Part shown: positions 5,937 to 62,218 of the stretch, in pieces
Numbering within the stretch: the first letter of the stretch is position 1
How the letters are laid out: each line of letters begins with the position of its first letter
IMG/VR virus record: IMGVR_UViG_3300009093_000008
Coordinates: 1 to 64,000 of that record
Origin: a virus
DNA length: 64,000 nucleotides
Direction: 5' to 3' (one strand)
The notes under the pieces: generated by a model
Databases searched by the model: none
Told to the model about the DNA's origin: nothing
What the model saw: only the letters and a program-made list of their open reading frames with translations
Program-made: the position numbers and the translations under genes

Positions 5937-6310
5937 CCTAATTCCTCTTCCACCTCGCTGAGGACCGGGCACGGCCACGGCGTATGCGATCCACAGCCAG
6001 CACACGTCGTCACGCCGTACTCTACACGCATCGGCCAGTGGACATAGAAGACGTCCAAACGCTCTTGGAAGTCCCCGGATCCCATCTCTCCACCCCGGAA
6101 GGAACGCCGCAGCGCCGCCCTGCCTCTCGCCCAGCGCCCCTGTGCCTCGGCCAGAGCTTCGAACTCGCTGCTGCTCGCCTCAGGGGCCCTGAGGCCAAAC
6201 ATCACCGCATCCAGCCATATCCCGCGACCGGCGGCACGGAACACCTCCCGCGTGCCCTCGTCCCCGAAGTCGTGAGGCTTGAAGTCGGCGAAGCGTTGCC
6301 TACCGCTCAT
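5924..6310 (-). CDS. Hypothetical protein, 128 aa, C-terminal CxxC
   Basis: ATG 6310 lies inside the end of the HNH/HTH gene (11-nt overlap). The body is Arg/Ala-rich helix (EALAEAQGRWARGRAALRRS). The C-terminal TTCAGCGSHTPWPCP could bind one zinc. Family unknown. Confidence 0.7.
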   Translation of the reverse strand: MSGRQRFADFKPHDFGDEGTREVFRAAGRGIWLDAVMFGLRAPEASSSEFEALAEAQGRWARGRAALRRSFRGGEMGSGDFQERLDVFYVHWPMRVEYGVTTCAGCGSHTPWPCPVLSEVEEELGCSP

Positions 6311-7076
6311 TCGGATACATCTCCCGGAGGTCTTCCGTCACCGCCTTGTGCGTCTGACCGCGCACAATAGCCAATACCGTAGGGTACGCCACGCCCATCT
6401 TCCTGGCCAGAGCCGTGGCCGAGATGCTGGGGTTCTCGTACGCGACCATGTAGATCTCTCGCACCCGGGAGGCTTCGATCTGGACGTTGCCGCGAATCGG
6501 CACGAACTCCTCAAGGATGTCCGCTATCCACTCCCGATGCCACCCGCCGCAGCAGATGTTCCGCACCGCCGACAGGGAGTAGCCCGTCAGCTCGGCGACC
6601 GTCCGCGCGTCCTTACCGTCCCGGCGGACCATGAGTGCGACCTCGCGGAACTCCTCGCGCGTAAGGCGCGGCTCCCGCAGCTTCATCGGAGCCTTAGCGA
6701 TGTGCTGAAGATTCACACAGCGGTGATGGCCGCACGTGGGATTCAGCCGGGTAGGCTTCTTCAGGGTGGGGAAATACAGATCGAGCAACAGCCGGGCAAG
6801 CGCACGCTGCGCCACCGGGGCACGGGAGCCGACAGGGCCTTTGACGCCCCTCGGGTAAGCGATGATCGGCCAAGAGATCTCGCTACGGGTGGAGAAGCTT
6901 GGGTCGCCATAGAACAGGCAGCCCTCCGGACTTACGGTGATCTCCTTCAGGACCGCCACCAGACGCTTGCGGCGCCGCTCGATCAGCCCGACCGTCTCGC
7001 CCTTGATGACAGGCCTTGTGGTCTTCAGCCACTCAAGGAGTTCAAGCCCCCTCAGTTGCGCCGGAGTCTGAGCCAT
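6300..7076 (-). CDS. HNH-type endonuclease with two HTH modules
   Basis: 258 aa from ATG 7076. The middle holds NPTCGHHRCVNLQHI, the Cys/His core of the phage HNH family related to homing enzymes. Two helix-turn-helix segments follow: REVALMVRRDGKDARTVAEL...SLSAVRNI and ISATALARKMGVAYPTVLAI. The N-terminal third (TVSPEGCLFYGD) fits the beta part of such nucleases. Together this suggests a sequence-specific nicking or homing endonuclease; a regulator that keeps only the fold is an alternative. It sits inside the operon with overlaps on both sides. Confidence 0.78.
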   Translation of the reverse strand: MAQTPAQLRGLELLEWLKTTRPVIKGETVGLIERRRKRLVAVLKEITVSPEGCLFYGDPSFSTRSEISWPIIAYPRGVKGPVGSRAPVAQRALARLLLDLYFPTLKKPTRLNPTCGHHRCVNLQHIAKAPMKLREPRLTREEFREVALMVRRDGKDARTVAELTGYSLSAVRNICCGGWHREWIADILEEFVPIRGNVQIEASRVREIYMVAYENPSISATALARKMGVAYPTVLAIVRGQTHKAVTEDLREMYPNER

Positions 7077-11618: not shown

Positions 11619-11807
11619 CTACTGTCCGCCCTTTTGCACGAACTGCTTCACGAACTCCTCGGAGTTCTTTTCCAGGACGTCATCGATCTCGTCGAGGAAA
11701 TCTAGGGCTTCGTCGGCTGCGGGGGTTTCCGGGGTGACTGACTCGGCAGTCTCGGGCTGTTCTTCCTCTTGGGAGGACTTGCCAGGCTTCACGAGCTTCT
11801 GTCCCAT
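11619..11807 (-). CDS. pup: Phage-encoded prokaryotic ubiquitin-like protein Pup
   Basis: 62 aa from ATG 11807, with GAAAGGAGG upstream; the frame to 11846 is an extension without SD. Pup is conjugated through its C-terminal Glu to lysines of targets by PafA, after Dop deamidates Gln, and Mpa/ARC then threads the conjugate into the proteasome. The sequence shows the hallmark C-terminal half: DEIDDVLEKN (39-48), FVKQFVQKGGQ (52-62), with terminal GGQ and the amphipathic helix that binds Mpa, Dop and PafA. The N-terminal half is acidic and disordered (SSQEEEQPETAES), as in host Pup, and the length matches (64 aa in Mycobacterium). No Dop, PafA or proteasome genes are in the window, so it would use host enzymes. 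It lies between a replication/regulation cluster and the terS-like gene. Confidence 0.9.
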   Translation of the reverse strand: MGQKLVKPGKSSQEEEQPETAESVTPETPAADEALDFLDEIDDVLEKNSEEFVKQFVQKGGQ

Positions 11808-11830
11808 GAAACCTCCTTTCGGCCATGCCC

Positions 11831-12082
11831 TCAGGATGCGCTCCACGTTGGCTCGCCGTCAACCGGCGTCTTGTCTCCACTGCACACGTTCATGTGCGAG
11901 ACCAGCGCCGCCATGGCCTTCTCATAGTCACTTCCTGCGCTCCGCACGAGTCCGCAGGAGTGATAGATACGGAACGCCCGATCATGGCGTGACCAGTGGA
12001 TACAGTCCAGATCGTAGCAATCCACCTTGTGAGAGACGACCTTCTCCCGACGTCGGGATGCCTCGTTGTCCTGCGTGCTCAT
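11831..12082 (-). CDS. Hypothetical protein upstream of Pup, 83 aa
   Basis: ATG 12082 (ATGA overlap). CYDLDCIHWSRHDRAFRIYH and CGLVRSAGSDYEKAM, later HMNVCSGD: four Cys and several His suggest a metal site. It is co-transcribed with Pup 23 nt downstream, but nothing in its sequence ties it to pupylation. Confidence 0.72.
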   Translation of the reverse strand: MSTQDNEASRRREKVVSHKVDCYDLDCIHWSRHDRAFRIYHSCGLVRSAGSDYEKAMAALVSHMNVCSGDKTPVDGEPTWSAS

Positions 12083-13086: not shown

Positions 13087-13492
13087 CTTCGCTCCTAGGC
13101 AGAACGGCTATACCGTCCGCATCCGCGAGCCGGTGGTTCGAATGCACGTGAACCGGGACTTCCCACGGAAACAGCCACGAATGGACGAGCAGGCCATCCT
13201 CATAGGCTTCGGAGCGGTGCGACTCAACCCAGCCGTGACAGCCGGTCGTGCCAGTGCCGCACAGCAACAGCAGATTAGACATGTCATTGATCCACGGGTT
13301 CTTAGTCCCGCCCATGCCGCGCGGCATCCGATGGTGGATCGAGAAGGCGCCACCGCCGACGATGTAAATTCCGCACCGCTCACACTTGTCATCAGCCCGC
13401 GTCCACACATCTATGCGCGTCTCAACGGCAGGACCCGTGTTCTTCTTCTTCGGCTTGATTCGGTTTCGTTGGAGCCTGGTCTTACGCTGCAT
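13070..13492 (-). CDS. HNH endonuclease
   Basis: 140 aa from ATG 13492 (AAGG at 5 nt); ATG 13522 with GGAGG is an equally plausible start adding 10 residues. The basic N-terminus MQRKTRLQRNRIKPKKK is typical. The core is RIDVWTRADDKCERCG, then SIHHRMPRGMGGT (catalytic His) and NLLLLCGTGTTGCHGW with VESHR. This is the single-domain HNH family found near packaging genes in many actinophages, where it assists terminase; here it is 2.5 kb from terL. Confidence 0.85.
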   Translation of the reverse strand: MQRKTRLQRNRIKPKKKNTGPAVETRIDVWTRADDKCERCGIYIVGGGAFSIHHRMPRGMGGTKNPWINDMSNLLLLCGTGTTGCHGWVESHRSEAYEDGLLVHSWLFPWEVPVHVHSNHRLADADGIAVLPRSEDDEAE

Positions 13493-13910
13493 CGGGACCT
13501 TGCGCCTCCAGGGCTTGTCCATCGTCCTCCTTGGCCAACTGCCGCCGTAGTCGTGGAGTGAACACCATACCACCGGCTACGCCACTGAAGGCCACATCTT
13601 GTTCTGCCCACCGGAAGCAGTTCGCCAGAACCGGGCAACGGCGACAGGATTCCAGAGCTTTCCCAATGGACTGCTCATCGTTGGTCACCCAAAAGACGGT
13701 GGTCTTGTCGCCGAGACACGCGGCCTCTTCATGCCAGTCCGGGTTGTCCGGGACGCTAAGCGGGGAATGCTCCCGCTTGTCTCCGCCGGGACACTCAGCC
13801 CCCTTAGCCTTATGGTACGGCAACACTGGGGTGGGTGACCGGAACCACCCGTCGCACCAGGCGCAACGCCTAGGCTGACGGGTGGGATACCGGGGAGGCT
13901 TACCGGCCAT
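13482..13910 (-). CDS. whiB: WhiB-family iron-sulfur regulator (variant G-rich turn)
   Basis: 142 aa from ATG 13910. WhiB proteins bind [4Fe-4S] through four cysteines and pair with sigma factor region 4. Here the cysteines are C65, C89, C92 and C98 (AACLG; CRRCPVLANC). The turn normally GVWGG reads GVAGGM, losing the conserved Trp. The basic tail TPRLRRQ follows. An N-terminal extension has CAWCDGWF and a later Cys, a possible zinc ribbon. A second WhiB gene is at 53012-53491. Phage WhiB proteins are known to interfere with host WhiB; that role is inferred here. Confidence 0.88.
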   Translation of the reverse strand: MAGKPPRYPTRQPRRCAWCDGWFRSPTPVLPYHKAKGAECPGGDKREHSPLSVPDNPDWHEEAACLGDKTTVFWVTNDEQSIGKALESCRRCPVLANCFRWAEQDVAFSGVAGGMVFTPRLRRQLAKEDDGQALEAQGPDAA

Positions 13911-15730: not shown

Positions 15731-15925
15731 ATGGAGAACACGCCCGTCACCGCAAAATGCGGTTGCGTCCTCATCATCGGCGAGGTCGGTGTGCCGCTGC
15801 ACATCCGGGAAGACGGCACTACGGTCGGTACAGATGCCCTGGTCAGAGTGTCGTGGTGCAACGAACACGCCCCGGCAGATGAGAAGCTGCACAAGTACAG
15901 CGTCCAGCCGAAGGAACCGGCGTGA
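15731..15925 (+). CDS. Small protein opening the rightward operon, 64 aa
   Basis: ATG 15731 with GAAGGGAG upstream. MENTPVTAKCGCVLIIGEVG contains CGC, with a second Cys/His pair at SWCNEH. Probably a small zinc-stabilised beta fold. GTGA overlap couples it to the Rad52-like gene. Confidence 0.75.
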   Translation: MENTPVTAKCGCVLIIGEVGVPLHIREDGTTVGTDALVRVSWCNEHAPADEKLHKYSVQPKEPA

Positions 15926-16608
15926 ACCGGCGCGCCCTCAGCCCGGCGCAGATGGAGCAGCTGCTCACCCCGATGCAGCGGGACCGCGTCCGGTTCCTGA
16001 AGAGTCAGGCCCATCTGGAGTCCTGGGACGTCCGTCGCTGGCTGATCCGAATCTTCGGGTTCGACGGGTGGGATTTCCGCATCCTGGAAACAGCGCTCGT
16101 ATATGAGCGCGTCACCTACGCCACGAAGGACAACGTCGAGAAGCCTCGCGCTACAGTGGTGTACCGTGTGACTGGTCAGCTCACGGTCAAGTTCGCTGAT
16201 GGTAGTTTCGGGGTGTGGGAAGACGGCGCAGCCGGGGATGCGGTGAACCTGCCGAGCGTGGGATCCGCGCATGACTTCGCGCTCAAGACTGCCATGTCTC
16301 AGGCTCTCAAGCGTTGTGCAGTGAACCTCGGCGACCAGTTCGGTCTGTCGCTTTACAACAAGGGCAAGCCTTCGGAAGCCGTGGTGGTCCGGGTCATGAA
16401 CAACGGCGCAGACAAGGAACCGATGCCGAAGGATCGGGCCGTTGTGGCGGGTGAGTTGGATCCGCCCGAGGTGGAAGACGTTGCGGCGGATCAGGATTTG
16501 GCCGCCGAGATGGCGCCCGCCGACCCTGCCGAGATCGAGGAACAGATCCGCAAACTACAGAAGGAATACAGTGCGGCGTATAGCGAAGAGGAGAACAAGG
16601 ATGTCTAA
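15922..16608 (+). CDS. Rad52/22-type single-strand annealing protein
   Basis: 228 aa from GTG 15922 (GTGA overlap). The annealing core is visible: RWLIRIFGFDGWDFRI, YRVTGQLTVKFADGS, and FALKTAMSQALKRCAVNLGD followed by QFGLSLYNKG, the signature of the Rad52 superfamily. Such proteins anneal complementary ssDNA during phage recombination and replication restart. The C-terminal 60 residues are acidic (EVEDVAADQDLAAEMAP), often the site for SSB or partner binding. It is paired with a RecB/Cas4-like nuclease two genes downstream. Confidence 0.85.
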   Translation: MNRRALSPAQMEQLLTPMQRDRVRFLKSQAHLESWDVRRWLIRIFGFDGWDFRILETALVYERVTYATKDNVEKPRATVVYRVTGQLTVKFADGSFGVWEDGAAGDAVNLPSVGSAHDFALKTAMSQALKRCAVNLGDQFGLSLYNKGKPSEAVVVRVMNNGADKEPMPKDRAVVAGELDPPEVEDVAADQDLAAEMAPADPAEIEEQIRKLQKEYSAAYSEEENKDV

Positions 16609-16828
16609 CGGAGTGCACACCCCCTACGAGCCGATCCCCTGTGCAGCACACAGGGACTACCACACGTGGCAACTGGAATGCTACCGCGCATGGCTGGCCT
16701 GGCTTGACGAGTACTGCGACCTTCGGCCCACCCCCGAACACCCGTACCTCGCCCCGACCGAAGCGCTCTGGCGCAAGTGGCACCTGCACGTCGAGCAGCT
16801 CATGGCTAAGGAGATGGTGAATGGTTGA
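16601..16828 (+). CDS. Hypothetical protein between annealase and nuclease, 75 aa
   Basis: ATG 16601 with GAGGAG upstream, 8-nt overlaps on both sides. Trp-rich (YHTWQLECYRAWLAWLDEY; ALWRKWHLHVEQLM). No family recognised; tight linkage suggests a part in the recombination module. Confidence 0.75.
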   Translation: MSNGVHTPYEPIPCAAHRDYHTWQLECYRAWLAWLDEYCDLRPTPEHPYLAPTEALWRKWHLHVEQLMAKEMVNG

Positions 16829-17714
16829 ACCGCCGCTCATCTCCAGCCTGCTGCTGCTCGGAGATCAGGAACGTCCGCGCAGTAAGCAGGTAGCCCCCGG
16901 TCCCAGTGATCTCGGGGGCTGTCGGCGTCGGTTCGGGTACAAGGCTGCCGGGGTCGAGCCGTGCAACCCTACAAGCTCCATCCAGGCCGCTATGGGTACG
17001 GCTATCCATGAGACGGTCGCGCGGACCGTGCAGAAGCTGAACAAGCCTGGGTGGCTCGTAGAGCAGAAGGTCACGCTTGCCGGGATCAGCGGCACCTTCG
17101 ACCTGTATGTGCCGAGCACGGTCATCGACTGGAAGACCACCAACACCAACGGTGCGAAGACGATCGGGGTTCACGGGCCGTATCTGAGCCAGCTCTGGCA
17201 AGTCCATCTCTACGGCGCGGCTGCCGTTGCGACGCTCGGCGTGCAGGTCGAGCGGGTGCGGTTGAACTACATCGTCCGGGACTCCGGGGCCGAGGTCATC
17301 TACGATGCGGCCCTCGATTTGAATCTTGTGAGGGATGCGCTAAAGTGGGCGCATGACATCAAGATCATGGACCTTGACGACCTACCCAGGGACTACGCGC
17401 CCGACTCGGTGTTCTGTAGGGGCTGCCCCTATGGTGGAGACGACGGCGGGATATGCTGGGACGGTGGAGTGCCGGACCGGGATCCTCGTTCCGTGGAGTA
17501 TCACGGCAATCTAGAGGAACTGGTCGAAGAACTCTACAACGTACGGCAGACCATTAAAACCCTGAGGGAACGAGAGGCGAACTTGAAGGGTACGCTCTCG
17601 GCCGTAGAGCCGGACGACGATACGGTTATCGTTGCTGGTTCCCGTGCGATACAGTGGAAGGGTAGCAACAGGGCCCTGACGTTCGTTCCCCCACCCCAAG
17701 GACCCTCTTCCTAG
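16821..17714 (+). CDS. Cas4/RecB-like PD-(D/E)XK exonuclease
   Basis: 297 aa from ATG 16821 (AAGGAG SD). Motifs: MGTAIHETVARTV (helix with His), GTFDLYVPSTVIDWKTTN (catalytic D...DxK; the Lys is in DWKTT), YLSQLWQVHLYG (QxxxY motif) and CRGCPY...GICWDGG (three or more Cys, possible Fe-S or zinc). This fits a RecB/Cas4-family 5'-3' exonuclease that makes ssDNA for the Rad52-like protein. The last part contains a coiled coil (LYNVRQTIKTLREREANLK). Confidence 0.85.
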   Translation: MVEPPLISSLLLLGDQERPRSKQVAPGPSDLGGCRRRFGYKAAGVEPCNPTSSIQAAMGTAIHETVARTVQKLNKPGWLVEQKVTLAGISGTFDLYVPSTVIDWKTTNTNGAKTIGVHGPYLSQLWQVHLYGAAAVATLGVQVERVRLNYIVRDSGAEVIYDAALDLNLVRDALKWAHDIKIMDLDDLPRDYAPDSVFCRGCPYGGDDGGICWDGGVPDRDPRSVEYHGNLEELVEELYNVRQTIKTLREREANLKGTLSAVEPDDDTVIVAGSRAIQWKGSNRALTFVPPPQGPSS

Positions 17715-17743
17715 TAGGCCCGATCCCTCTTGCTAGGAAGAGG
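17704..17743 (+). terminator. Hairpin at end of recombination operon
   Basis: CCTCTTCCTAG (17704-17714) pairs with CTAGGAAGAGG (17733-17743). The first arm overlaps the nuclease stop codon. A second, stronger terminator follows at 17785. Confidence 0.55.
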
Positions 17744-17784
17744 ACAGAGCCCGCGCTGTAGGTGGCAGCGGCAGTGGCTCCGCG

Positions 17785-17813
17785 AAGCCCCCGACTTGAC
17801 CAGTCGGGGGCTT
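17785..17813 (+). terminator. Strong Rho-independent-type terminator
   Basis: AAGCCCCCGACT and AGTCGGGGGCTT form a perfect 12-bp stem around a 5-nt loop, followed by AGTGTTG. It separates the recombination operon from the next promoter. Confidence 0.8.
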
Positions 17814-17817
17814 AGTG

Positions 17818-17846
17818 TTGCCACGGCCTCTGTTGTGGACTACGGT
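17818..17846 (+). promoter_or_regulatory. Possible promoter TTGCCA-17-TACGGT
   Basis: TTGCCA at 17818-17823 and TACGGT at 17841-17846 have a 17-nt spacer. They stand right after the terminator, 47 nt upstream of ATG 17894. Sequence match is moderate. Confidence 0.45.
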
Positions 17847-17893
17847 TGATGGGACGAAGCAAAATTCATGGGCTCCCTAGGGAGATGGTCCAC

Positions 17894-18067
17894 ATGAGCC
17901 CGAAGATGTACAAAGGCCGCCACGTCCGTCTGGAAGACGGAACGGGCGGTCTTGTGTTTTCTGCCGATCAGGTCGACGAGGTGGTCTTTCTGACCGTCGA
18001 GACTGCCGGGGGCGGCATGGTACGCGTCGAGATCGAGCACGCCGAGGTGATTACGCCGAACGGGTGA
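17894..18067 (+). CDS. Small KOW/SH3-like protein, 57 aa
   Basis: ATG 17894 with AGGGAG 9 nt upstream; two earlier ATGs lack a site. YKGRHVRLEDGTGGLVFSAD, then VVFLTVETAGGGMVRVEI, five short strands with a Gly-rich turn as in KOW/SH3-like barrels. Function unknown. It stands alone between two promoters. Confidence 0.65.
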   Translation: MSPKMYKGRHVRLEDGTGGLVFSADQVDEVVFLTVETAGGGMVRVEIEHAEVITPNG

Positions 18068-18093
18068 ACTTGAGCGGGGTCCCCCTTGACCGC

Positions 18094-18121
18094 TTGACAA
18101 CCCCCCACGATTTGGTATCTT
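18094..18121 (+). promoter_or_regulatory. Strong sigma-A-type promoter TTGACA-16-TATCTT
   Basis: Perfect -35 TTGACA (18094-18099), 16-nt spacer, -10 TATCTT (18116-18121). A second TTGAC is directly upstream (18087). The expected start is near 18128, so the transcript would begin with about 250 nt lacking a gene, followed by a 34-codon ORF. It is the best consensus promoter seen in the window. Confidence 0.75.
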
Positions 18122-18127
18122 AGAAGT

Positions 18128-18370
18128 AGAGGGAAACCCACCGGGGACTCGGAGCAAGTGGAGGCCGAGGAAGCGGAAAGGTCCCGAGGTCACCGGAAGC
18201 CTTGTCAACCGGGAAGCAAGATCCGAAAGGGATCTTGGAGAACCACCCCAAAGCCGCGTAGTGCAGGGTGAGCAACCGACCCCAGAGGCCGCGAGACAGA
18301 GAGCCATCCCGAAAGGGCCGTGAAACTGTCCCTCCCCCGCACTACGCTCCACTACACAGCACCAAGAGGG
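18128..18370 (+). ncRNA. Structured RNA leader or independent ncRNA
   Basis: No ORF fits this purine-rich stretch. Complementary arms are plentiful. GGGAC/GTCCC encloses TCGG/CCGA at 18144-18185. AAGATCC-GAAAG-GGATCTT forms a 7-bp hairpin at ~18218-18236. GCGTAGTGC (18256-18264) pairs perfectly with GCACTACGC (18339-18347), enclosing GGGT/ACCC and GACAG/CTGTC; a CCC-GAAA-GGG hairpin lies inside the last. GGAAGC recurs three times. It lies directly after a strong promoter. RNase P RNA, tmRNA and group I intron signatures were looked for and not found. It could be a stable RNA or a regulatory leader of the next ORF. Confidence 0.6.
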
Positions 18371-18376
18371 GCAGTC

Positions 18377-18481
18377 ATGACCAACAGGACCAGTAAGCAC
18401 AGGGGCGAAAAGAAGGACATCCGCACCTCGGCGGCGATCGCCAGGATCATCGCCCGTAGCCACGAAGACGGAGGCAACTGA
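18377..18481 (+). CDS. 34-aa basic peptide
   Basis: ATG 18377 with AGAGGGG 6 nt upstream. Sequence begins MTNRTSKHRGEKKDIRT, then a helix SAAIARIIARSHEDG. Strongly basic. It is the first possible gene on the transcript from 18094, lying between the structured region and the tRNA-like element. Confidence 0.55.
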   Translation: MTNRTSKHRGEKKDIRTSAAIARIIARSHEDGGN

Positions 18482-18517
18482 CAACTGAACGAAACGACCG
18501 GCCCTCGCGGGCCGCGT

Positions 18518-18583
18518 GGCACGTAGTATCCAGGATGACTAGCGGACACCCGCTGAAGCCGGGTTCGATTCCCGGTCGTGCCT
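18518..18583 (+). ncRNA. tRNA-like element with intact T arm and degenerate anticodon arm
   Basis: GGCACG (18518-18523) pairs with CGTGCC (18577-18582), followed by T. The T arm is perfect: CCGGG-TTCGATT-CCCGG. A D-like arm TAGT/ACTA encloses a loop containing GG. The anticodon position holds only GCGG-ACAC-CCGC, a 4-nt loop that cannot present an anticodon. Total length is 66 nt. It is preceded by a GGCCC-TCGC-GGGCC hairpin at 18500-18513. It may be an RNase P or RNase Z processing signal, a tRNA relic, or an attachment-site remnant. Confidence 0.6.
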
Positions 18584-18651
18584 CTACGACCTGGTCCGCT
18601 TACCAAGCGAACTGGAAGAAACGGAACCCTAGGTAAGGAAAGGAACATCTC

Positions 18652-18894
18652 ATGAACAACTACCGTGTCGAGTACAGTCATAACCGGTCGGCTGCCGTGG
18701 GCCGGTCGGCTGCCGTGGGACGGGACGTCATCCACGTCAGCGCCACCACCCGCGAAGACGCCGTGTACGCCGCGTTCGACGCCGTCGCGGATCTGGGCCG
18801 CAAGGTCCACCACATCGGGGATGTCCTCATGCAGGATGGTGACCGTTGGGTCATGACCCACGACCACCGCGCGGTGTCTGCGATGGTGAAGTGA
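18652..18894 (+). CDS. Hypothetical protein with in-frame 18-bp duplication, 80 aa
   Basis: ATG 18652 with AAGGAAAGGA upstream. RSAAVG occurs twice in tandem because of a perfect 18-bp DNA repeat. The remainder (RDVIHVSATTREDAVYAAFD; GRKVHHIGDVLMQDGDRWVM) predicts a small alpha/beta domain. Function unknown; part of the rightward operon. Confidence 0.75.
   Translation: MNNYRVEYSHNRSAAVGRSAAVGRDVIHVSATTREDAVYAAFDAVADLGRKVHHIGDVLMQDGDRWVMTHDHRAVSAMVK
18685..18719 (+). repeat. Tandem 18-bp repeat, two copies
   Basis: CGGTCGGCTGCCGTGGG is present at 18685 and again 18 bases later at 18703, in frame within the 80-aa gene, with no mismatch over 17 bases. It looks like a recent slip duplication. 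Confidence 0.85.
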
Positions 18895-18900
18895 GGGATC

Positions 18901-19173
18901 ATGGACCAGAAGATCTGTAGTGCAGTCGAACAGCTCGGCTCCTACATAACCGGCGACCGGCTCTTGGTCACCGACCACACCAGTGGAAGCCACGTCTACG
19001 AAATGACCGTCACCCGCCCCCTGCACCGTTGCGACGGAGCGTTCGGGTCGTACGAGTCCAGCCGGATATCGGCACAGATCAGGATCGCTGGCTACGCCCG
19101 CGAGATCACCGCCGAGCAGATCGCCAGCGGACAGGTTGAGGTCAGCGTCTCAACCGGAGAGGACCAGCCGTGA
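18901..19173 (+). CDS. Hypothetical protein, 90 aa
   Basis: ATG 18901 with GAGGGATC upstream, 6 nt after the previous stop. Predicted beta-rich (RLLVTDHTSGSHVYEMTVTR; SGQVEVSVSTGEDQP). GTGA overlap with the next gene. No family recognised. Confidence 0.75.
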   Translation: MDQKICSAVEQLGSYITGDRLLVTDHTSGSHVYEMTVTRPLHRCDGAFGSYESSRISAQIRIAGYAREITAEQIASGQVEVSVSTGEDQP

Positions 19174-19349
19174 GCTTCAACGCGGACGGCGTCTACGTCG
19201 GCCACACCCACGAAGACGACGAGTACACTAGCGACCACCACACCGAGCGGAGCGGCTGCGTCTACTGCGGCAGCCCCAATCACGACGACTGCGGGGGCGG
19301 CCCGTCCGTCTACCTCGTCGGCGGCTCGAACGAGTACGACGACGACTAA
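19170..19349 (+). CDS. Zinc-knuckle protein, 59 aa
   Basis: GTG 19170 overlaps the upstream stop as GTGA. The product is very acidic (HTHEDDEYTSDHHTE; NEYDDD), with a central GCVYCGSPNHDDCGGG, a CX2CX4HX2C knuckle. Metal binding is likely; partner unknown. Confidence 0.72.
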   Translation: MSFNADGVYVGHTHEDDEYTSDHHTERSGCVYCGSPNHDDCGGGPSVYLVGGSNEYDDD

Positions 19350-19358
19350 GAAGGGATC

Positions 19359-19817
19359 ATGAAAGACAACAAGACCATAGCCATCCTCGGCACTCTCGGG
19401 GCCGTCGTCTTTGCGACTGGCTTCGCCGCCCTCGTCGCCGAGCTGCCCAGCCACCACCACGCCGCGCCTACCACCGTAACGGCTTCTGAATCGGCCGCAC
19501 AGACAGCCTCCCGGGTCGAGACCCAGATCTCGGCACACCTGCCCGGGGGTACCTGGTCGGAGCGCGGAGCGGACGTTACAGGGGCGTACGCGGTCGAGTC
19601 CTACCTCAACGCCGACAGCGTCCCCCCGGTCGTTGTCTCCCAGTACCGAGACCCGGCAGTCGCCGAGCAGGCAGTCACCTACTACCAGAGCCTCGGCGAG
19701 TACAGCCCGGTGGTCGCAGACGGGTCGATCGTTATACTCGTCTCGAACACCGCCACCCCGGCGGAGGCCGCAGCCGTTCAGGCCGTGCTTCCCGCCGGAG
19801 CAGCACAGAACCACTAA
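19359..19817 (+). CDS. Membrane-anchored or secreted protein, 152 aa
   Basis: ATG 19359 with AGAAGGGATC upstream. MKDNK then a hydrophobic segment TIAILGTLGAVVFATGFAAL, either an uncleaved anchor or a signal. The outside part is Ala/Thr-rich (APTTVTASESAAQTASRVET) followed by an alpha/beta region (TYYQSLGEYSPVVADGSIVI). Probably displayed on the outer face of the membrane; superinfection exclusion is a guess. Confidence 0.75.
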   Translation: MKDNKTIAILGTLGAVVFATGFAALVAELPSHHHAAPTTVTASESAAQTASRVETQISAHLPGGTWSERGADVTGAYAVESYLNADSVPPVVVSQYRDPAVAEQAVTYYQSLGEYSPVVADGSIVILVSNTATPAEAAAVQAVLPAGAAQNH

Positions 19818-19837
19818 GCAGAAAGGGATCAACCACC

Positions 19838-20857
19838 ATGGCTCACAACATCGACACCAGCACCGGATCCGCCGCCTTCTACATGCACAAGAAGAACCCC
19901 GACGACGCGCCGTGGCACATGCTCGGCCAGTGGCAGGGCGAAGCCGCCACCGCCGACGAGGCTCTCCGCCTGGCCCATCTGGACTGGGGCGTCAAGCTCA
20001 CCCCGGTTCTGGCCAACGTCGAGGAACTGATGACCATCGAAGTTCCCGGCAAGTTCGTCACCTACCGTGACGACACCTGCGAGCCGCTCGGCGTCGTCGG
20101 GAAGCAGTACCTCCCGACTCAGAATCTCGACGCGTTCGAGTGGGTGTCGGAGATCTCCGGGGAAGCCACCTTCGAAACCGCCGGGGCACTCGACGGCGGA
20201 CGGCGGGTGTTCGTCTCGGCGAACCTGAACCGGGAAATCCTGATCGACCCGAACGGCGCCGCCGACAAGTCCGATCTGTACCTGGTGTTCTACACCGCGC
20301 ACGACGGAACCATGGAGAACGTCGGATTCATCACCTCGGTCCGGCCGGTCTGCCACAACACCGTCAGCTACGGCCTGAAGAACGCCGAGCACAAGATCAG
20401 CCGGAAGCACACCCGCAACGGCATGCGGAACATGGCCAGCGACGCCCGGGGCATCCTCGGGATCGTGGACACCTACGCCGAGGCCTACCAACGCGAAGCG
20501 GAAGACCTGTTCCACCAGCACGCCCGCGTGGACCAGTTCTTCAAGGTCGCCAACCGGGTGCTCGGCCTGACCGCCACCATCGGTTCGGGCAAGACCCGGC
20601 AGGACAAGGTCCGGGACACCCTGGAAACCATCTGGGACGGCGAGACCTTGGACGGGATCCGCAACACCGCGTGGGGCGTCGAGCAGGCCCTCACCGAGTA
20701 TGTCGATTGGTGGGCGCCGATCAACGGCTCCAAGGGCCTGTCCGACGCCGCCGTGAAGGTCATGCGCGCCGAGCGCGCCATGGTCGGCGGGACCTCGGGC
20801 ACCTCCGAGAAGAAGTCTGAGATCCACCGGGCCGTGCGTCAGCTGTTCCTGGTCTGA
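19838..20857 (+). CDS. DUF932 protein (phage/plasmid-like family)
   Basis: 339 aa from ATG 19838 with AAAGGGATC upstream. Family motifs: WHMLGQ near residue 26, YRDDTCEPLGVVGKQYLPTQN (40-100 region), VCHNTVSYGL and HTRNGMRNM. DUF932 proteins are common on phages and plasmids; their role is unknown, perhaps in DNA maintenance. It ends the rightward block; a strong terminator follows immediately. Confidence 0.88.
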   Translation: MAHNIDTSTGSAAFYMHKKNPDDAPWHMLGQWQGEAATADEALRLAHLDWGVKLTPVLANVEELMTIEVPGKFVTYRDDTCEPLGVVGKQYLPTQNLDAFEWVSEISGEATFETAGALDGGRRVFVSANLNREILIDPNGAADKSDLYLVFYTAHDGTMENVGFITSVRPVCHNTVSYGLKNAEHKISRKHTRNGMRNMASDARGILGIVDTYAEAYQREAEDLFHQHARVDQFFKVANRVLGLTATIGSGKTRQDKVRDTLETIWDGETLDGIRNTAWGVEQALTEYVDWWAPINGSKGLSDAAVKVMRAERAMVGGTSGTSEKKSEIHRAVRQLFLV

Positions 20858-20861
20858 GCAG

Positions 20862-20895
20862 AACCCCCCATCCCTTCGCGGGGTGGGGGGTTTTT
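20862..20895 (+). terminator. Rho-independent terminator, usable from both sides
   Basis: AACCCCCCATCCC pairs with GGGGTGGGGGGTT around TTCGC and is followed by TTTTT at 20891-20895. It lies between convergent genes (DUF932 rightward, exonuclease leftward). Confidence 0.9.
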
Positions 20896-46930: not shown

Positions 46931-49900
46931 CTACTGCCCGGAAGACAACCGGTCGCGTACGTCAGAGGCAGCTACATCCTCAGGCCAAGCCGTATAGCCC
47001 TGGTGTGCACCCATCTCCGTAGCGATTTGCTGCCGGGCATCATCCCGGGCCTGCGCATCCGCCTGCACACTCGACGGGAGATTGTCCACGAACGTCTGCC
47101 GCAGATCGTTCACCTGCTGCATCCGTTCCTGCTGGTCAGATGCCAAAGCGGCACGTTCCGCAGCGTAACCATCCAGCTTGATGCCATTCTCGGCAGTCAC
47201 ATCATCCCAGGACAGGTCGCAATTGCAGTTCGGCCCACCCTCGCACAACTCCCCGAAGAACCCGTCACCAGGCCAGCCGGGCAACGTCTCGATGGTGTAC
47301 TGCTCACCATCCCGCTCAGCACACAGGGCACAATCCCCGCCGCTCCACGTGATCATCTGCTCGCCGGGCGCCAGGTCGGTACCGTCGTCGAGGGTCACCC
47401 CATCGTCGCCGTTGCTGGAAGCCTCTACCTGTGCAGCCGCTACCCTGGTGATGCCGTAGGCCTGCTCATAGGACGACTGGGCCTGCTGCCCGTACAAGTC
47501 GAGCCTTCCAGCCATCCCAGCGAACGCGGCAGTGGTAGCGCCAGCCGCAGTCACATCCCGCATCAGCTTCTCAAGGAAGTGCCTACCATCCTGGGCTTGA
47601 GCCTCCGCCTGCTCATCCCAGTAGTCCCCCACCTGGTCATGGAGATCTTCGTAGTCGTCACTCTCGAAATCGACAGGCGGAGTCTTCCTCGGCGCGAACT
47701 TGACCAGCCGGTGAGAACCCGGGTGGCCAAGATCAGACATAGCGTGTGAAGCACCCAGCCGCATCGCCTTGGAAGTGCCATCCGTCATAGCGGCAACTCC
47801 CCTGGAGATGAATTCCGGTCCACCGATCCTTCCGGTACGGAGGCCGTTAACGGCTTTTCCCAGTTCTGCCGCCACCGAATCCTTGATTGGCGCCAGTGCG
47901 GCCTCACGTCTGGATTGGGTAACCGACTGCCTAGCTTTCTCGACTACGTCGAGTGGATCCTCACCCATCTGCAACGCGTAGACCATGGCGTCTAGCACAC
48001 CGTGCTCGATCGCCCTGCACTCCCAGTCCTCGATCGACTTGCCCTGCTTCAACCGGCGCCGTAGGGCATCCAGCTCGGCAAGAGCAGCCTTCGTGACCAT
48101 CGCCTCCAGCGCCTTCGCGCCCGCGCCCGTGGTCTTACCGCCGTTACCTTCCCCAGCGCCAGGCTTAGAGCCAACAGCACGGTCAGAAGCCGCAGCCCCG
48201 GCAGAAGCCCCGGACGCGCCGGGGTTCGGCTTCGGCTTGGGCTTAGCCGCCCCACCACCACTATCCGGCGGAGCCTCACCAGGCGGAGCTATCGAGCCTG
48301 CCTCGGCGTTCGGCTGCAACCCCTCCGGCTTGCCCGTACTCGGGTCGATCGAGCCGAGGGCCAGGTAGCCCATGCTCGTCGCCACCAGGGGTTCAGTCGT
48401 CATCGGCAGACCGAACGGCTGTTCGCCCAGCTCGTTCCGGCCCTCGTCGATCGTGAGCAGTCCAGCGTTGATCTTGGAAACGAGGATGGAGACCTGAGTA
48501 GCCTCGTCCAGACCCTGCTCCATACCCTCCCACTGCCACTCCATGTCGGACTGGCCGCAGATGTCCTGAAGGATGTAGTCGAAGACAGCGGACTTCAGCC
48601 ACATCAGAAGCGGCTTCAGCGCCTTACGCTCGATGATCGAGTTCGCTGCACGGGTCTGCATGTTCGACGTCGAGGAGGACTGCACCATGGACACGCGCGG
48701 CGTGATACCGATCTCCACCGGAAGCACGTTGAACGCCATACACACCGAGGACATCACGATCTCGTCGAACTGGTCGGCGAGCGCCGTGGGCTTCTGCGGA
48801 TCCACCCGGGAACCGGGAGGGAGCACAACCACCCGATGCTTGTGCGCGGAGTCCCCGGCAAGAGCGTTCAGCGAATCCTGCAAACTGCGCATCTGGCCCA
48901 CGGTCATGTTCGTGTCGCCGGGGGAGATGAACACGCCGGGGATGGATCCCTCGTTGAAGTAGTCCAGCTGGAACTGTTGCCGATACAGGCCAGTCATCAC
49001 CGGGATGAGGGCACGCTCGACCGGCGGGAACCCGTACGGGGTCCACCGTCGAGGCACGTACGGCAGGTAGAGCAGCTGGTTGGAGCGGTACTCCGCGACC
49101 ATCTCGATGTCGTCGAAGGTCTCCGGGTCCGGGGGTGTCATCAGGTCGGTACGCGGCACGCCATACAGGTATTGCTGGTAGGCCACGTTCGGGGGTTTCG
49201 GCCGTGCACCACGGACGTCGATCATCGGACGGATCGAGGTACCGTCGATCAGCTGAAGCTCCGCCAGATCAGAACCCAGCAGTCCCTTACCCTTCATGCG
49301 GGTAGGCGCCATATACAGCGACAGCGCATCCACCTGGAACACGTCGTACAGCAGAGCAGCCAACCACGTGGAGTGGTCGGCGTAGTCGGTGTCCGGGCGT
49401 TTCCAGAACCTCATCGCCTCGGCGCGGCGTTCCTGGAAGTCCTTGTGCGCGGCATGGTCAGACGCCATGTCCTTCTCGGCTTCCTTGGTGGGGACGATGT
49501 CCCACTCCAAACCACGGATCTCCGAGATGCGAGTATCGATACAGGCATTCGCCACCGAGTACATGTCGCAGATGCTGCGCAGGTTGTCGAACGAGGCCAG
49601 CTTGTAACCTTCAGATCCAGGAACACCATGCGGCAGGTTCCACGCGACCGGGTACTCATACCGGCGCGGATCCACCAGGCCATCATCGTTGAGCTGATCC
49701 AGTCCGGGACCCACCATCGGCACACCAGGGCCGAACAGGGCATTCGCGAACGTGTTCGGGTCCCGCTGCAACCCAGCGGAACCCATGTTGAACGACGCGT
49801 ACTGGGGCTGCTGAGCGGTCCCCGGACCGTAGTTGGCGACACCCCCGGAACCGTACCCACCCTCGGCAGGATAGGATCCCTTGCGCTGACGCTGCGCCCG

Positions 49901-52849: not shown

Positions 52850-53040
52850 GCGTTCTCCTTCAGATGGCCTATCAGCCAATCACGGGCTTCCGCCCAGGTC
52901 TTGAAGCTGGACAGGTGGTAGAAGGTCCCGATGTCCCACCTCAGCCACGAGGAAGGGGACCAAGAGCCTTCAACGCGGTACACGTCCCACCGGCGCCGCC
53001 AGTAGGTATCCTCAACCGCTTCGATCCGATACCGGCTCAC
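52846..53040 (-). CDS. Hypothetical protein, 64 aa
   Basis: GTG 53040 with AAGGGG upstream, overlapping the WhiB gene by 29 nt. Aromatic/basic (DTYWRRRWDVYRVEGSW; KTWAEARDWLIGHL). No family recognised. Confidence 0.65.
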   Translation of the reverse strand: MSRYRIEAVEDTYWRRRWDVYRVEGSWSPSSWLRWDIGTFYHLSSFKTWAEARDWLIGHLKENA

Positions 53041-53491
53041 GCTCGGCCCCTTCGGTCCTAGTCCACGAGGTACTGTCGTACGGACGGAACTCCCCACCCC
53101 ACACACCAGACGACCCCGACAGCTTACCCCACTCGCCACACTGAAGGCGAACCGGGCAGTTGTCGCAGATGGGCTTCCACGCCTGTCGGTTGATCTCACC
53201 CAGCCCGTTCGGGAAGAACAACACTTCCAGATCAGCCTCTGTCAGCAGGCGCCGTGACTTCGGGTCGGCAGGCTTGTTCTTGATATGGCAGGCAGCCAAC
53301 TCCCACCATCCGGTTCTGCGCTTCGGCGCCTCAAACCCGGACCGCACTATGCGGCAGGTGTTGCAGTGGTTGTTGCTGTACCGGCCGCGCTGCATCGAGA
53401 AGTAGGCCATGGTCTTGTGCTGTAGGCAGGTTTCACAGCGCACCTTCTCGGCGAGGAAGTTCACCGAGGCGGAGTGGTCATCACTTGCCAT
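53012..53491 (-). CDS. whiB: WhiB-family regulator with canonical GVWGG turn
   Basis: 159 aa from ATG 53491. Cysteines C68, C109, C112, C118 (LAACHI; CDNCPVRLQC) are the Fe-S ligands, and SGVWGGEFRP is the canonical turn. An N-terminal zinc ribbon (CETC 19-22, CNTC 43-46) is added, as in the first WhiB. Between C68 and C109 is an insert (LTEADLEVLFFPNG). Phage WhiBs can repress host whiB genes. The two paralogues in this window differ in the turn, so they may divide roles. Confidence 0.9.
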   Translation of the reverse strand: MASDDHSASVNFLAEKVRCETCLQHKTMAYFSMQRGRYSNNHCNTCRIVRSGFEAPKRRTGWWELAACHIKNKPADPKSRRLLTEADLEVLFFPNGLGEINRQAWKPICDNCPVRLQCGEWGKLSGSSGVWGGEFRPYDSTSWTRTEGAEREPVSDRSG

Positions 53492-59355: not shown

Positions 59356-60210
59356 TCAGTCCGGGCTGTCATCGCTGAACCCCTCATCGACGAGGCGACG
59401 CATCCTCACCGGGTCGTGCAGCGCGGCCCGGTACTTCATGGCGAGGTCGTTGTTCTGACCGGCCGTGCCGCCCTTCCAGAACCGCGTCACGTGGGTGTTC
59501 CCGCCGAAGCGCGGGTGCCACAGGTGATACACCGGGTTGTCGGTGGTGCGGTGTCGGCAGTACAGGGTGTCGAGGGCCCACAGGAACGACACATCCTCAC
59601 TGCCCCAGGAACGGAACCGAGGATCCATGCCACGCACCAGCTCGAACGCTCTACGCGGCATGATCGTGATCAGCGCGCCCCAGTGGTGGCCGGATGAGGT
59701 TCCGGTCCACACGTCCAGCTCCCACGACGGGGGCGGGTCTTCTAGGTGCACACGCCTGCGCGGGTTGCTCTCCAGCAGTTCCTCGGAGAACTCGGCACTG
59801 AGCCGGTAGAACCTGCGATAGGGCACATACCAGCGTCGGTGTCCTCGGCGCTCGGCGTCGCGGATGTTCTGCGCACACTCCACGATCACGTCAGGATCGA
59901 TCAGGCAGTCCGAGTCCATGATCACGAACACTTCGCCGGTCGCACGGCGGCAGCCGTCGTTGACCGCCATCGACTTCGAGAACGGGTCGAACCCGTCGTC
60001 GGTGCCCATGACGATCTCGATGCCCGGGAGGTGGTGCGTGTAGTACTCCCGCAGCCATTCCCACGTGCGCTCGCGAATGTCGTTGTCCGGCCGGAACGGT
60101 ACGACAACCGAGATACCATGCCCGCGCTGATGTCGCTTGCCCGGTCGGGTCTTCATGAGGTTGAGGCGACGCATCCACTCGAATGCGGCATCCCAAGGCT
60201 GTCGCACCAT
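59356..60210 (-). CDS. Glycosyltransferase family 2-like (GT-A)
   Basis: 284 aa from ATG 60210. GISVVVPFRPDNDIRERTWE, then EVFVIMDSDCLIDPDVI (DxD-like metal/donor site) and GALITIMPRRAFELVRGMDP and SWGSEDVSFLWALD, the galactosyltransferase-type C-terminal ED motif. Such enzymes in actinophages modify virion proteins or cell glycans. Pairs with the pyruvyltransferase-like gene 0.2 kb upstream. Cytoplasmic, no membrane helix. Confidence 0.88.
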   Translation of the reverse strand: MVRQPWDAAFEWMRRLNLMKTRPGKRHQRGHGISVVVPFRPDNDIRERTWEWLREYYTHHLPGIEIVMGTDDGFDPFSKSMAVNDGCRRATGEVFVIMDSDCLIDPDVIVECAQNIRDAERRGHRRWYVPYRRFYRLSAEFSEELLESNPRRRVHLEDPPPSWELDVWTGTSSGHHWGALITIMPRRAFELVRGMDPRFRSWGSEDVSFLWALDTLYCRHRTTDNPVYHLWHPRFGGNTHVTRFWKGGTAGQNNDLAMKYRAALHDPVRMRRLVDEGFSDDSPD

Positions 60211-60213
60211 GGA

Positions 60214-60405
60214 TTACCTCTCGACCTTGCCGAACTCGGCTTCGAGCGCGGTGATGATGTCCTGAAGCTCAGCGACTAGCGCGGAGTTCTGGGACGCGCC
60301 GGTCACGAACGCATTCGCGTCGGCCTCGTTCTGGAAAGACGCAACCCATCTGCCATCCTTCAACACGTTGAAAGACGGGTGAGCCACCACTGTGTAGTCA
60401 GCCAC
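60214..60405 (-). CDS. Hypothetical protein, 63 aa
   Basis: GTG 60405 with GGAGG upstream. MADYTVVAHPSFNVLKDGRW and SFQNEADANAFVTG, then a C-terminal helix. Small alpha/beta protein; wedged between the two glycan enzymes. No family recognised. Confidence 0.68.
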   Translation of the reverse strand: MADYTVVAHPSFNVLKDGRWVASFQNEADANAFVTGASQNSALVAELQDIITALEAEFGKVER

Positions 60406-60408
60406 TGG

Positions 60409-61167
60409 TTAACCTCCGGTTCGATCTCGGACCGACTTGCCGAACACCTCGAAGGCGTCGGCGAGCTGGTCTCGTATGTCGTTAATCTTATCGCGGTTCG
60501 CCAGCTGGAACTTCCCCACCTCGATGGGCATATCGATAGCGGCCGAATAGTCTTGCCATTTGAAACGGCCGCCCTCGTTCGGGTTGTCGAGGGTAGTGCT
60601 GTGAATCACGCGGCGGGGAATGCCGAAAGCGTCGGCCAAGATAGTCCCGTGCAGAGACGAGGTAACCACCCGGCGAGACTCCGCTATCGTCTGCGCCACC
60701 CACAGCGGATCCCGCCACGGATGGACCACGATCGAGTCGGGACCGGCGACGAACTCGCGCATCGTCTCCAGCTTGTGGTCAGTCAGGTGCGGAACGATCG
60801 CGGTACGCCAAACCTTCGTGGTGGGTGTGACGAGTTCTGGCGCGAGTAGGCCCGGGTCGCCTATGGCGTGTCCACCCTTGTAGCCCGGGGCCGTCAGCGG
60901 GCCGCGTAGCGCCAGCACGGTGGCATTCTGAAGTTGCGGGGTGAACGTGGGGTACAGGTTTCCGCATCCGAGTACCGTACCGGCGAAGTCCGGGGGTAGG
61001 TGATGCAGGATCGAGCCGATCACCGCCACGTCCGCGTCCTCCGGAGTAGAGAGGGCGCAATCGACGTTCGCGAAACGGTTCAACAGGTACGGGGCGAGCA
61101 GGTCGCCGAAGTTCTTCTTCTTCGTCCAGTAGTAGGCCTTGACTACAGGTCGCGGGCGTCGGCGCAT
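60409..61167 (-). CDS. Polysaccharide pyruvyltransferase-like protein
   Basis: 252 aa from ATG 61167. Family pattern: YYWTKKKNFGDLLAPYLLNR (NFGD), GCGNLYPTF, GYKGGHAIGDPGLLAPELV, and SSLHGTILADAFGIPRR, the conserved SxHG. CsaB-type enzymes transfer pyruvate to sugars, and some members transfer sugars. With the adjacent GT2 it may build a modified glycan on virion proteins. Confidence 0.85.
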   Translation of the reverse strand: MRRRPRPVVKAYYWTKKKNFGDLLAPYLLNRFANVDCALSTPEDADVAVIGSILHHLPPDFAGTVLGCGNLYPTFTPQLQNATVLALRGPLTAPGYKGGHAIGDPGLLAPELVTPTTKVWRTAIVPHLTDHKLETMREFVAGPDSIVVHPWRDPLWVAQTIAESRRVVTSSLHGTILADAFGIPRRVIHSTTLDNPNEGGRFKWQDYSAAIDMPIEVGKFQLANRDKINDIRDQLADAFEVFGKSVRDRTGG

Positions 61168-61304
61168 GCAGCTCTCTTCAAGATGAAAGGCGGAAGTGTC
61201 CTTCCAGTGTATCTATTTGGAGCGGTGGCACCTAGCGACAAACCGGCCCCAACGCGCGGAACCCATAAGCCAAGCGAGCCCGCCGAAGATGATACGACAC
61301 CACA

Positions 61305-61436
61305 TTATGAGGCTCCCACCCCTGAGGGGCGATCAACAAAGAACGCCCAGCCATGCACGATCAGCTGTTGCGAAGCGAGCGCGGCGATCACTAGCACGAT
61401 GAGTAGGGCGAACCCCACCATCCGGCGCAGCGCCAC
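61305..61436 (-). CDS. 43-aa one-helix membrane protein
   Basis: GTG 61436 or ATG 61421 (38 aa); the start is uncertain, with no strong SD. ALLIVLVIAALASQQLIVHG forms one helix, followed by WAFFVDRPSGVGAS. It lies 11 nt after the MsrQ-like gene and may be its small partner. The longer frame to 61784 is antisense-like to that gene. Confidence 0.5.
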   Translation of the reverse strand: MALRRMVGFALLIVLVIAALASQQLIVHGWAFFVDRPSGVGAS

Positions 61437-61447
61437 CTGTTGCCGGG

Positions 61448-62218
61448 TCAGTCCGAGGGCGGTTGCCGATCGAAGGCCAAATGTCCTTTGAAGGCCAGTT
61501 CCCGTAAGAACGGCACGAAGCCCAGAGCGCACACGCCCAGGCAAGCGAGAGCTGCTGACCACCTTAGGAACCTGTCCTTCTTCTCTTTGTGGGCCTGGTC
61601 CCACCACCGCGACACGGCGGGGATTCGCAGGATAGCAAGTGGGAGGGTAGCCAGGATGTAGTCGCCGAAGAACCGCATCCTGAAGCCGAACAGCAGCAAC
61701 AGGTGTATGGCGATAGACGCCCATACCACGTAGACGAGGCGGTGGACGATCCGCCAACGTTTGCCCAGCCACTTCAGCGCCCACTGGTTCGACGTCACCA
61801 CCATCGGGAGCAGCAGCGCGAACGACAGCGACCCCAGAACCAGGAAGGTGTGGCCGAACAGCCGCGTCAGGAACCCGCCGGGGAACGTGTCAGACGTGGT
61901 GATAGCTGCCAGGGTGATATCGAGCGCGGCGATGGCGAACATAGCCCGTCCGGCGTCTCTGCGCAGGATCAGGTGCGTACGCCACCCGCCGGTGAGTGTC
62001 GCCAGCGGGGTGACCATGAGTAGGACGATGAACGCCGATACAGCGCCCGTCCCTCCCACGTCGGCCGTAGACGCCGAGAGGTCTTGGAAACTATGCGGCC
62101 AGCCCATTACGCCAGCCCAGATCTCCGGGGCCAGGAACACAAACGGGATCAGGAACAGCGCCCGGAACAGCCACACGAACCATGGTTGACGTCCGGGTTT
62201 AGCGATAGCACCAGGCAA
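61448..62218 (-). CDS. MsrQ/YedZ-like heme-binding membrane protein
   Basis: 256 aa with six hydrophobic helices. Start TTG 62218 after GAAAGAGAG. TSNQWALKWLGKRWRIVHRL and VYVVWASIAIHLLLLFG match the MsrQ (protein-methionine-sulfoxide reductase, heme subunit) core. The His pair is spaced 13 residues, as in MsrQ. In helix 3, where MsrQ has a His ligand, RRDAGRAMFAIAALD carries Asp. MsrQ passes electrons from the respiratory chain to MsrP to repair oxidised periplasmic methionines. No MsrP is in the window. The missing ligand may alter heme binding. Confidence 0.82.
   Translation of the reverse strand: MPGAIAKPGRQPWFVWLFRALFLIPFVFLAPEIWAGVMGWPHSFQDLSASTADVGGTGAVSAFIVLLMVTPLATLTGGWRTHLILRRDAGRAMFAIAALDITLAAITTSDTFPGGFLTRLFGHTFLVLGSLSFALLLPMVVTSNQWALKWLGKRWRIVHRLVYVVWASIAIHLLLLFGFRMRFFGDYILATLPLAILRIPAVSRWWDQAHKEKKDRFLRWSAALACLGVCALGFVPFLRELAFKGHLAFDRQPPSD

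What the first reader, a model, noticed from the sequence alone, without database searches (positions are those of the whole stretch)
18094..18376. Strong promoter driving a ~250-nt structured RNA
TTGACA-16-TATCTT is followed by a purine-rich stretch with no ORF. The stretch has a nested stem pair, a GAAA-type hairpin, and a 9-bp long-range stem GCGTAGTGC/GCACTACGC enclosing further stems. Known tmRNA, RNase P and group I intron signatures were not seen. It may be a novel phage RNA or riboregulator.
Basis: partly seen in the sequence, partly recalled or inferred. Interest (0 to 1): 0.72.

Follow-up and report, generated by a model that had tools for sequence, protein, structure and literature searches.

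The report
Phage leader RNA behind strong promoter
An orphan soil phage carries its one textbook-strong promoter in front of about 230 bases of non-coding, foldable RNA and a run of tiny genes; this resembles the abundant but unexplained leader RNAs of other phages of actinobacteria, but it is too isolated for its structure to be proven by evolution.

Summary
The observation largely holds. TTGACA-16-TATCTT (18094-18121, extended -10) is the only site with at least 10/12 matches on either strand of the 64-kb window. The 230 nt after it are non-coding in all six frames and poor in T (9.6% against 19%). The 9-bp stem is there and is part of a 12/13-nt helix. Folding energy of the whole is ordinary (z -0.6 to -1.4). 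No Rfam family matches. The only relative found in viral, phage, plasmid or genome collections is a near-identical contig, so covariation cannot be tested. One of its four substitutions (A18265G) removes the single mismatch of the long helix, giving 13 perfect pairs; it ranks third of 693 possible single changes by predicted stabilisation. No terminator follows the RNA: it is the 5' leader of a rightward operon that begins with a 34-codon ORF, passes a tRNA-Cys-like relic with a shrunken anticodon loop, and ends at a terminator near 20865-20895. Best reading: a structured leader, probably also accumulating as a processed non-coding RNA, as reported for the early promoters of phages L5 and D29. 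Transcription and function are inferred.

The parts
18094..18121 (+). Promoter TTGACA-16-TATCTT with extended -10 (TGG)
   Evidence: 10/12 consensus; only such site in the window on both strands
18126..18355 (+). Non-coding, T-poor structured leader / candidate RNA
   Evidence: No coding signal in six frames; T 9.6%; no Rfam family
18126..18129 (+). Predicted closing stem P1, 5' arm; partner 18352-18355
   Evidence: pair probability 0.97-0.98 within 18126-18376, but lost from the minimum-energy fold when the ORF region is included; only 4 bp, and may be cut by the true start site
18217..18237 (+). 8-bp hairpin CAAGATCC-GAAAG-GGATCTTG
   Evidence: pair probability 0.82-1.0; I15
18256..18268 (+). 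Long helix P2, 5' arm (GCGTAGTGCAGGG)
   Evidence: 12/13 complementary to 18335-18347; 13/13 in the relative, by A18265G
18335..18347 (+). Long helix P2, 3' arm (CCCCGCACTACGC)
18295..18330 (+). Stem GACAG/CUGUC enclosing GNRA hairpin CCC-GAAA-GGG (18308-18317)
   Evidence: pair probability about 0.9
18377..18481 (+). 34-codon ORF MTNRTSKHRGEKKDIRTSAAIARIIARSHEDGGN with Shine-Dalgarno AGAGGGG
   Evidence: codon log-odds 0.387, in the range of real genes; no known relatives
18518..18586 (+). tRNA-like cloverleaf, probable tRNA-Cys relic with 4-nt 'anticodon' loop
   Evidence: Folds as a cloverleaf; 24 nt of the 3' half identical to a tRNA-Cys gene; not called as tRNA
18652..20857 (+). Downstream co-oriented ORFs (18652, 18901, 19170, 19359) and a DUF932 gene (19838-20857)
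20865..20895 (+). Intrinsic-terminator-like hairpin (CCCCCCATCCC-TTCGC-GGGGTGGGGGG-TTTTT) at the convergent end of the operon
   Evidence: read directly in the sequence (printed)
17766..17832 (+). Hairpin (31-nt arms, 81% complementary), probable terminator of the upstream recombination genes
   Evidence: I1

Best explanation
The stretch is the 5' leader of a rightward, probably early, phage operon. It is transcribed by host RNA polymerase from the phage's single consensus promoter. It folds into a compact, GC-paired, A-rich RNA built round a 12- or 13-bp helix. It is most likely cut away from the downstream message and accumulates as a stable non-coding RNA of about 230 nt, as happens to the leader transcripts of the early promoter of mycobacteriophages L5, D29 and StarStuff. 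Shown by sequence: promoter, absence of coding, helices, absence of a terminator before the 34-codon ORF, downstream tRNA-Cys-like element and operon-end terminator. Inferred: transcription, timing, processing, stability and any role in host takeover.
For: Unique consensus promoter. Non-coding in six frames. Extreme T depletion. Helix of 12/13 in 2 of 300 shuffles. A natural substitution in the only relative repairs the single mismatch of that helix and ranks 3 of 693 possible substitutions (3 of 231 transitions) by stabilisation; the relative's RNA folds at z -2.27, 2 of 200 shuffles as good. The segment 18256-18347, chosen after the fact, has z -3.5. Precedent: abundant stable ncRNAs of 100-500 nt from the early promoter of L5/D29/StarStuff, processed from one transcript (PMC5712189), and three intergenic ncRNAs among the top transcripts of Rhodococcus phage WC1 (PMC10986025).
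Against: Whole-region fold is not better than shuffles. No homologue, so no double-sided covariation. The variant is one nucleotide in one contig and could be an assembly error. No expression data. No terminator or evident processing site marks a 3' end near 18355. P1 is short, depends on a start site at 18126 or upstream, and is not in the minimum-energy fold once the ORF is included.
Confidence: 0.45

Rival explanations
1. A purely cis-acting leader: the fold controls translation or stability of the 34-codon ORF and the genes behind it, and never acts as a separate RNA.
For: Continuous with the ORF, no terminator between; the Shine-Dalgarno lies within 20 nt of P1, itself in a weak hairpin 18359-18372; CCCTC in P2's 3' flank (18329-18333) is complementary to GAGGG of the Shine-Dalgarno (sequence).
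Against: No Rfam riboswitch or leader family; the predicted Shine-Dalgarno sequestration is only about 4 pairs.
Confidence: 0.25
2. An ordinary promoter with an ordinary, only casually structured untranslated region next to a decaying tRNA gene; the stems are what GC-rich sequence gives.
For: Whole-region z near zero; 9-bp perfect stems occur in 26/300 shuffles and 29/255 phage windows; the neighbouring tRNA is a relic.
Against: T depletion, 12/13 helix in 2/300 shuffles, helix-repairing variant, a 300-nt non-coding gap kept in a compact phage genome.
Confidence: 0.22
3. A put-like antitermination leader: the nascent RNA binds host RNA polymerase and lets it read through hairpins and terminators downstream.
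For: Position directly behind an early-type promoter, like putL of HK022 (PMC9378689); a GC hairpin at about 18497-18512 and other hairpins lie downstream.
Against: put is about 70 nt with two stem-loops; here about 230 nt and no sequence relation; the operon is only about 2.7 kb and ends at a normal terminator.
Confidence: 0.06

Closest known systems
Early-promoter (Pleft) non-coding RNAs of Cluster A mycobacteriophages L5, D29, StarStuff (PMC5712189)
   Same: Phage with actinobacterial traits, strong promoter, non-coding promoter-proximal transcript without conserved ORF
   Different: Theirs is about 500 nt at the genome end, observed experimentally and toxic to the host; here about 230 nt, mid-genome, not observed. 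No sequence or structure-model match to the D29 region (best 4.7 bits; no blastn match in 50,697 phage records)
Transcribed intergenic non-coding regions of Rhodococcus phage WC1 (PMC10986025)
   Same: Highly transcribed intergenic phage RNA, function unknown
   Different: Known from RNA-seq only; no sequence relation found (one search covered deposited phage records; whether WC1 is among them was not checked)
HK022 putL/putR RNA (PMC9378689)
   Same: Structured RNA just behind an early phage promoter
   Different: About 70 nt, two stem-loops, acts on E. coli RNA polymerase; no relation detected here
GOLLD / ROOL large ornate phage-associated RNAs
   Same: Structured non-coding RNA in phage DNA near tRNA-like sequence (association from memory)
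   Different: Far larger; Rfam models did not match

Membership tests
Any Rfam 15 family (tmRNA, RNase P, 6S, riboswitches, introns, GOLLD, ROOL) | Covariance-model score at or above gathering threshold | tested here: not met
   0 matches in the whole window; at E<=10 only chance-level matches overlap 18094-18376
Actinophage promoter-proximal ncRNA (L5/D29 kind) | Strong host-type promoter directly upstream | tested here: met
Actinophage promoter-proximal ncRNA (L5/D29 kind) | No conserved ORF in the transcribed stretch | tested here: met
   six-frame codon test
Actinophage promoter-proximal ncRNA (L5/D29 kind) | Abundant, stable, processed transcript | not testable with these tools
   needs RNA-seq/Northern
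Actinophage promoter-proximal ncRNA (L5/D29 kind) | Sequence/structure homology to the D29 right-end RNA | tested here: not met
   R1 against D29 47000-49127, best 4.7 bits over 2 kb
Structured RNA supported by covariation | Compensatory changes in homologues | tested here: inconclusive
   One relative, one-sided helix-completing change A18265G; no divergent homologue
tRNA (18518-18586 element) | 7-nt anticodon loop and tRNA model score | tested here: not met
   4-nt loop; not found by ARAGORN or RF00005
tmRNA | tRNA-like domain joined from 5' and 3' ends, tag ORF | tested here: not met
   low-threshold ARAGORN gives only noise
HK022 put-type antiterminator | Read-through of terminators by host polymerase | not testable with these tools
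   functional assay needed

The most novel reading that the evidence does not exclude
A new family of compact phage RNA of about 230 nt (13-bp backbone helix, GNRA hairpin, 5'-3' closing stem) made from the strongest phage promoter and matured with the help of a tRNA-Cys-like 3' element that has lost its anticodon, so that the mimic serves RNA processing rather than translation.
Probability: 0.1. Interest if true: 0.75.

Novelty: new member of a known kind. Interest (0 to 1): 0.4.

Why it matters
The early leader RNAs of actinobacteriophages are among the most abundant transcripts in infected cells, in one case toxic to the host, and what they do is not known. A compact, separate example with a definite fold model and a helix-completing natural variant would give something small enough to probe and mutate. 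If the tRNA-Cys-like element turns out to be used, it would be an unusual phage tRNA mimic.

Tried and rejected
Homologue searches that gave nothing beyond the near-identical contig: blastn of 17716-18660 in phages and plasmids; DUF932, Cas4-like exonuclease, annealing protein, terminase and capsid-region proteins in IMG/VR; the DnaQ-like exonuclease gave 79 distant records (about 32-51% protein identity) without the RNA; DUF932 in genome contigs. Exact P2 arms with a 55-80 nt gap in IMG/VR gave 11 other stretches, judged unrelated by their loops and by the model (L105 has a weak hit, 14.1 bits, E 0.0038, at 6276-6337, far from its own P2-like arms at 11690-11765, taken as chance but not followed up). 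Model R1, built from one phage species and so weak, found no good match elsewhere. Rejected: tmRNA; known Rfam families; a hidden gene on either strand, including the 214-codon minus-strand ORF 17840-18484 (codon score -0.26); an iteron-type origin (no direct-repeat array); attP in a host tRNA gene (the 24-nt T-arm/acceptor string occurs in one of about 85,000 genomes, a Thalassospira tRNA-Cys, and no integrase appeared among the proteins scanned; the PHROGs list for 41 of them was cut at 25 of 36 families and some ORFs were not scanned, so an integrase is not fully excluded); antisense to other phage transcripts (no complement longer than 12 nt).

Full report
WHERE IT IS. The window is 64,000 of 66,281 bases of one viral record. 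WhiB-like genes, a Pup-like gene and best protein matches in actinobacteriophages point to an actinobacterial host; this is inference. The phage is an orphan: its terminase, capsid-region, exonuclease and DUF932 proteins have no close relative in IMG/VR other than fragments of one near-identical phage (contigs 3300025913_000092 and _000127).

WHAT IS THERE. After the recombination genes (annealing protein 15922-16608, Cas4-like exonuclease 16821-17714) comes a long hairpin at 17766-17832, a small ORF (17846/17888-18067), and then TTGACA-16-TATCTT at 18094-18121. It is the only site in the window, both strands, with 10 or more of 12 matches at 16-18 spacing. From 18126 to 18355 no frame on either strand looks coded: the six frames score -0.22 to -0.48 against +0.36 for real genes, while the next ORF, 34 codons from 18377, scores +0.39 and has AGAGGGG at the right distance. 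The stretch has 9.6% T against a mean of 19%; 22 of 6377 windows are as low or lower.

THE FOLD. The 9-bp stem is part of a 13-nt helix with one mismatch, A18265.C18338. A 12/13 helix is found in 2 of 300 dinucleotide shuffles, but a plain 9-bp perfect stem in 26 of 300. High-probability elements besides P2 are the 8-bp hairpin 18217-18237, the stem 18295-18330 with its GAAA hairpin, and a short closing stem 18126-18129/18352-18355. The closing stem drops out of the minimum-energy fold when the start of the ORF is included, and the start site predicted from the usual spacing (18127-18129, 6-8 nt behind the -10; established knowledge) may cut into it. The 5' third is ambiguous. Taken whole, the energy is ordinary (z -0.58; -1.4; 0.0 with the ORF); 18256-18347, selected after the fact, has z -3.5.

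THE ONE NATURAL VARIANT. The near-identical contig 3300025913_000092 differs from the window by four substitutions in the stretches compared (16207, 17435, 18265, 33654). One is A18265G, which turns the mismatch into G-C and makes 13 continuous pairs. Of the 693 single substitutions possible in 18126-18356, this ranks third by ensemble stabilisation, third of 231 among transitions; the variant RNA folds at z -2.27. This is mild, one-sided support (about 0.5-1.5% by rank, noticed after the fact), not covariation, and an assembly error is not excluded.

THE SURROUNDINGS. No terminator separates the stretch from the 34-codon ORF, so it is a leader. Behind that ORF lie a GC hairpin (CGGCCC-TCG-CGGGCCG) and a cloverleaf-forming element at 18518-18586. 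Its T arm and acceptor share 24 nt with one genome contig among about 85,000 species, inside a Thalassospira tRNA-Cys gene; it keeps U at the discriminator position, but its 'anticodon' loop is 4 nt and neither ARAGORN nor the Rfam tRNA model accepts it. The simplest reading is a phage tRNA-Cys gene that lost part of its anticodon loop; reuse as a processing signal is possible but unsupported. Further small ORFs and a DUF932 gene follow, and the unit ends at a strong terminator-like hairpin at about 20865-20895 (sequence printed).

MECHANISM. Shown by sequence: promoter, non-coding leader, helices, ORF, tRNA-like relic, terminator. Inferred: transcription by host polymerase early in infection; separation of a stable leader RNA from the message; accumulation. 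The model is the leader RNA of Pleft in L5, D29 and StarStuff: about 500 nt, most abundant transcript, processed to 100-400 nt, toxic when cloned (PMC5712189). Rhodococcus phage WC1 also has three non-coding regions among its top transcripts (PMC10986025). No sequence or structural kinship to the D29 region was found, so 'works like' is proposed and 'is a member of' is not.

VERDICT. A real and somewhat unusual feature: the best promoter of the phage drives a non-coding, probably structured leader. It is a plausible new example of a known but unexplained class, not a demonstrated new RNA family. It cannot be advanced by covariation until relatives are found.

Noticed in passing
window 11619-11846 (-): Phage-encoded Pup-like protein (Pfam PF05639, E 1.2e-16) with a Pup-type C-terminus ...FVQKGGQ; by tblastn only one other record among 50,697 phage records has a match. 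A phage feeding its own Pup into, or decoying, the host pupylation-proteasome system would be notable.
   Followed up: partly
window 18518-18586 (+): tRNA-Cys-like cloverleaf with a 4-nt anticodon loop, missed by tRNA finders.
   Followed up: partly
window 13482-13910 (-) and 53012-53491 (-): Two WhiB-like transcription factor genes.
   Followed up: no
window 59356-62218 (-): Neighbouring genes matching glycosyltransferase family 2, polysaccharide pyruvyl transferase and ferric-reductase-like membrane domains.
   Followed up: no
window 20070-20091 and 62765-62786: A 22-nt stretch inside the DUF932 gene recurs perfectly, inverted, inside the gene at 62231-63130.
   Followed up: no
window 18680-18720 (+): In-frame tandem duplication (RSAAVGRSAAVGR) in the 80-codon ORF 18652-18894.
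   Followed up: no
L103, L107, L108, L110, L111 (about 94-bp stretch): Five IMG/VR contigs share a conserved GCGTAGTGC...GCACTACGC inverted repeat with further GCGTAG-like copies next to it; unrelated to this RNA, possibly a DNA-level element.
   Followed up: no
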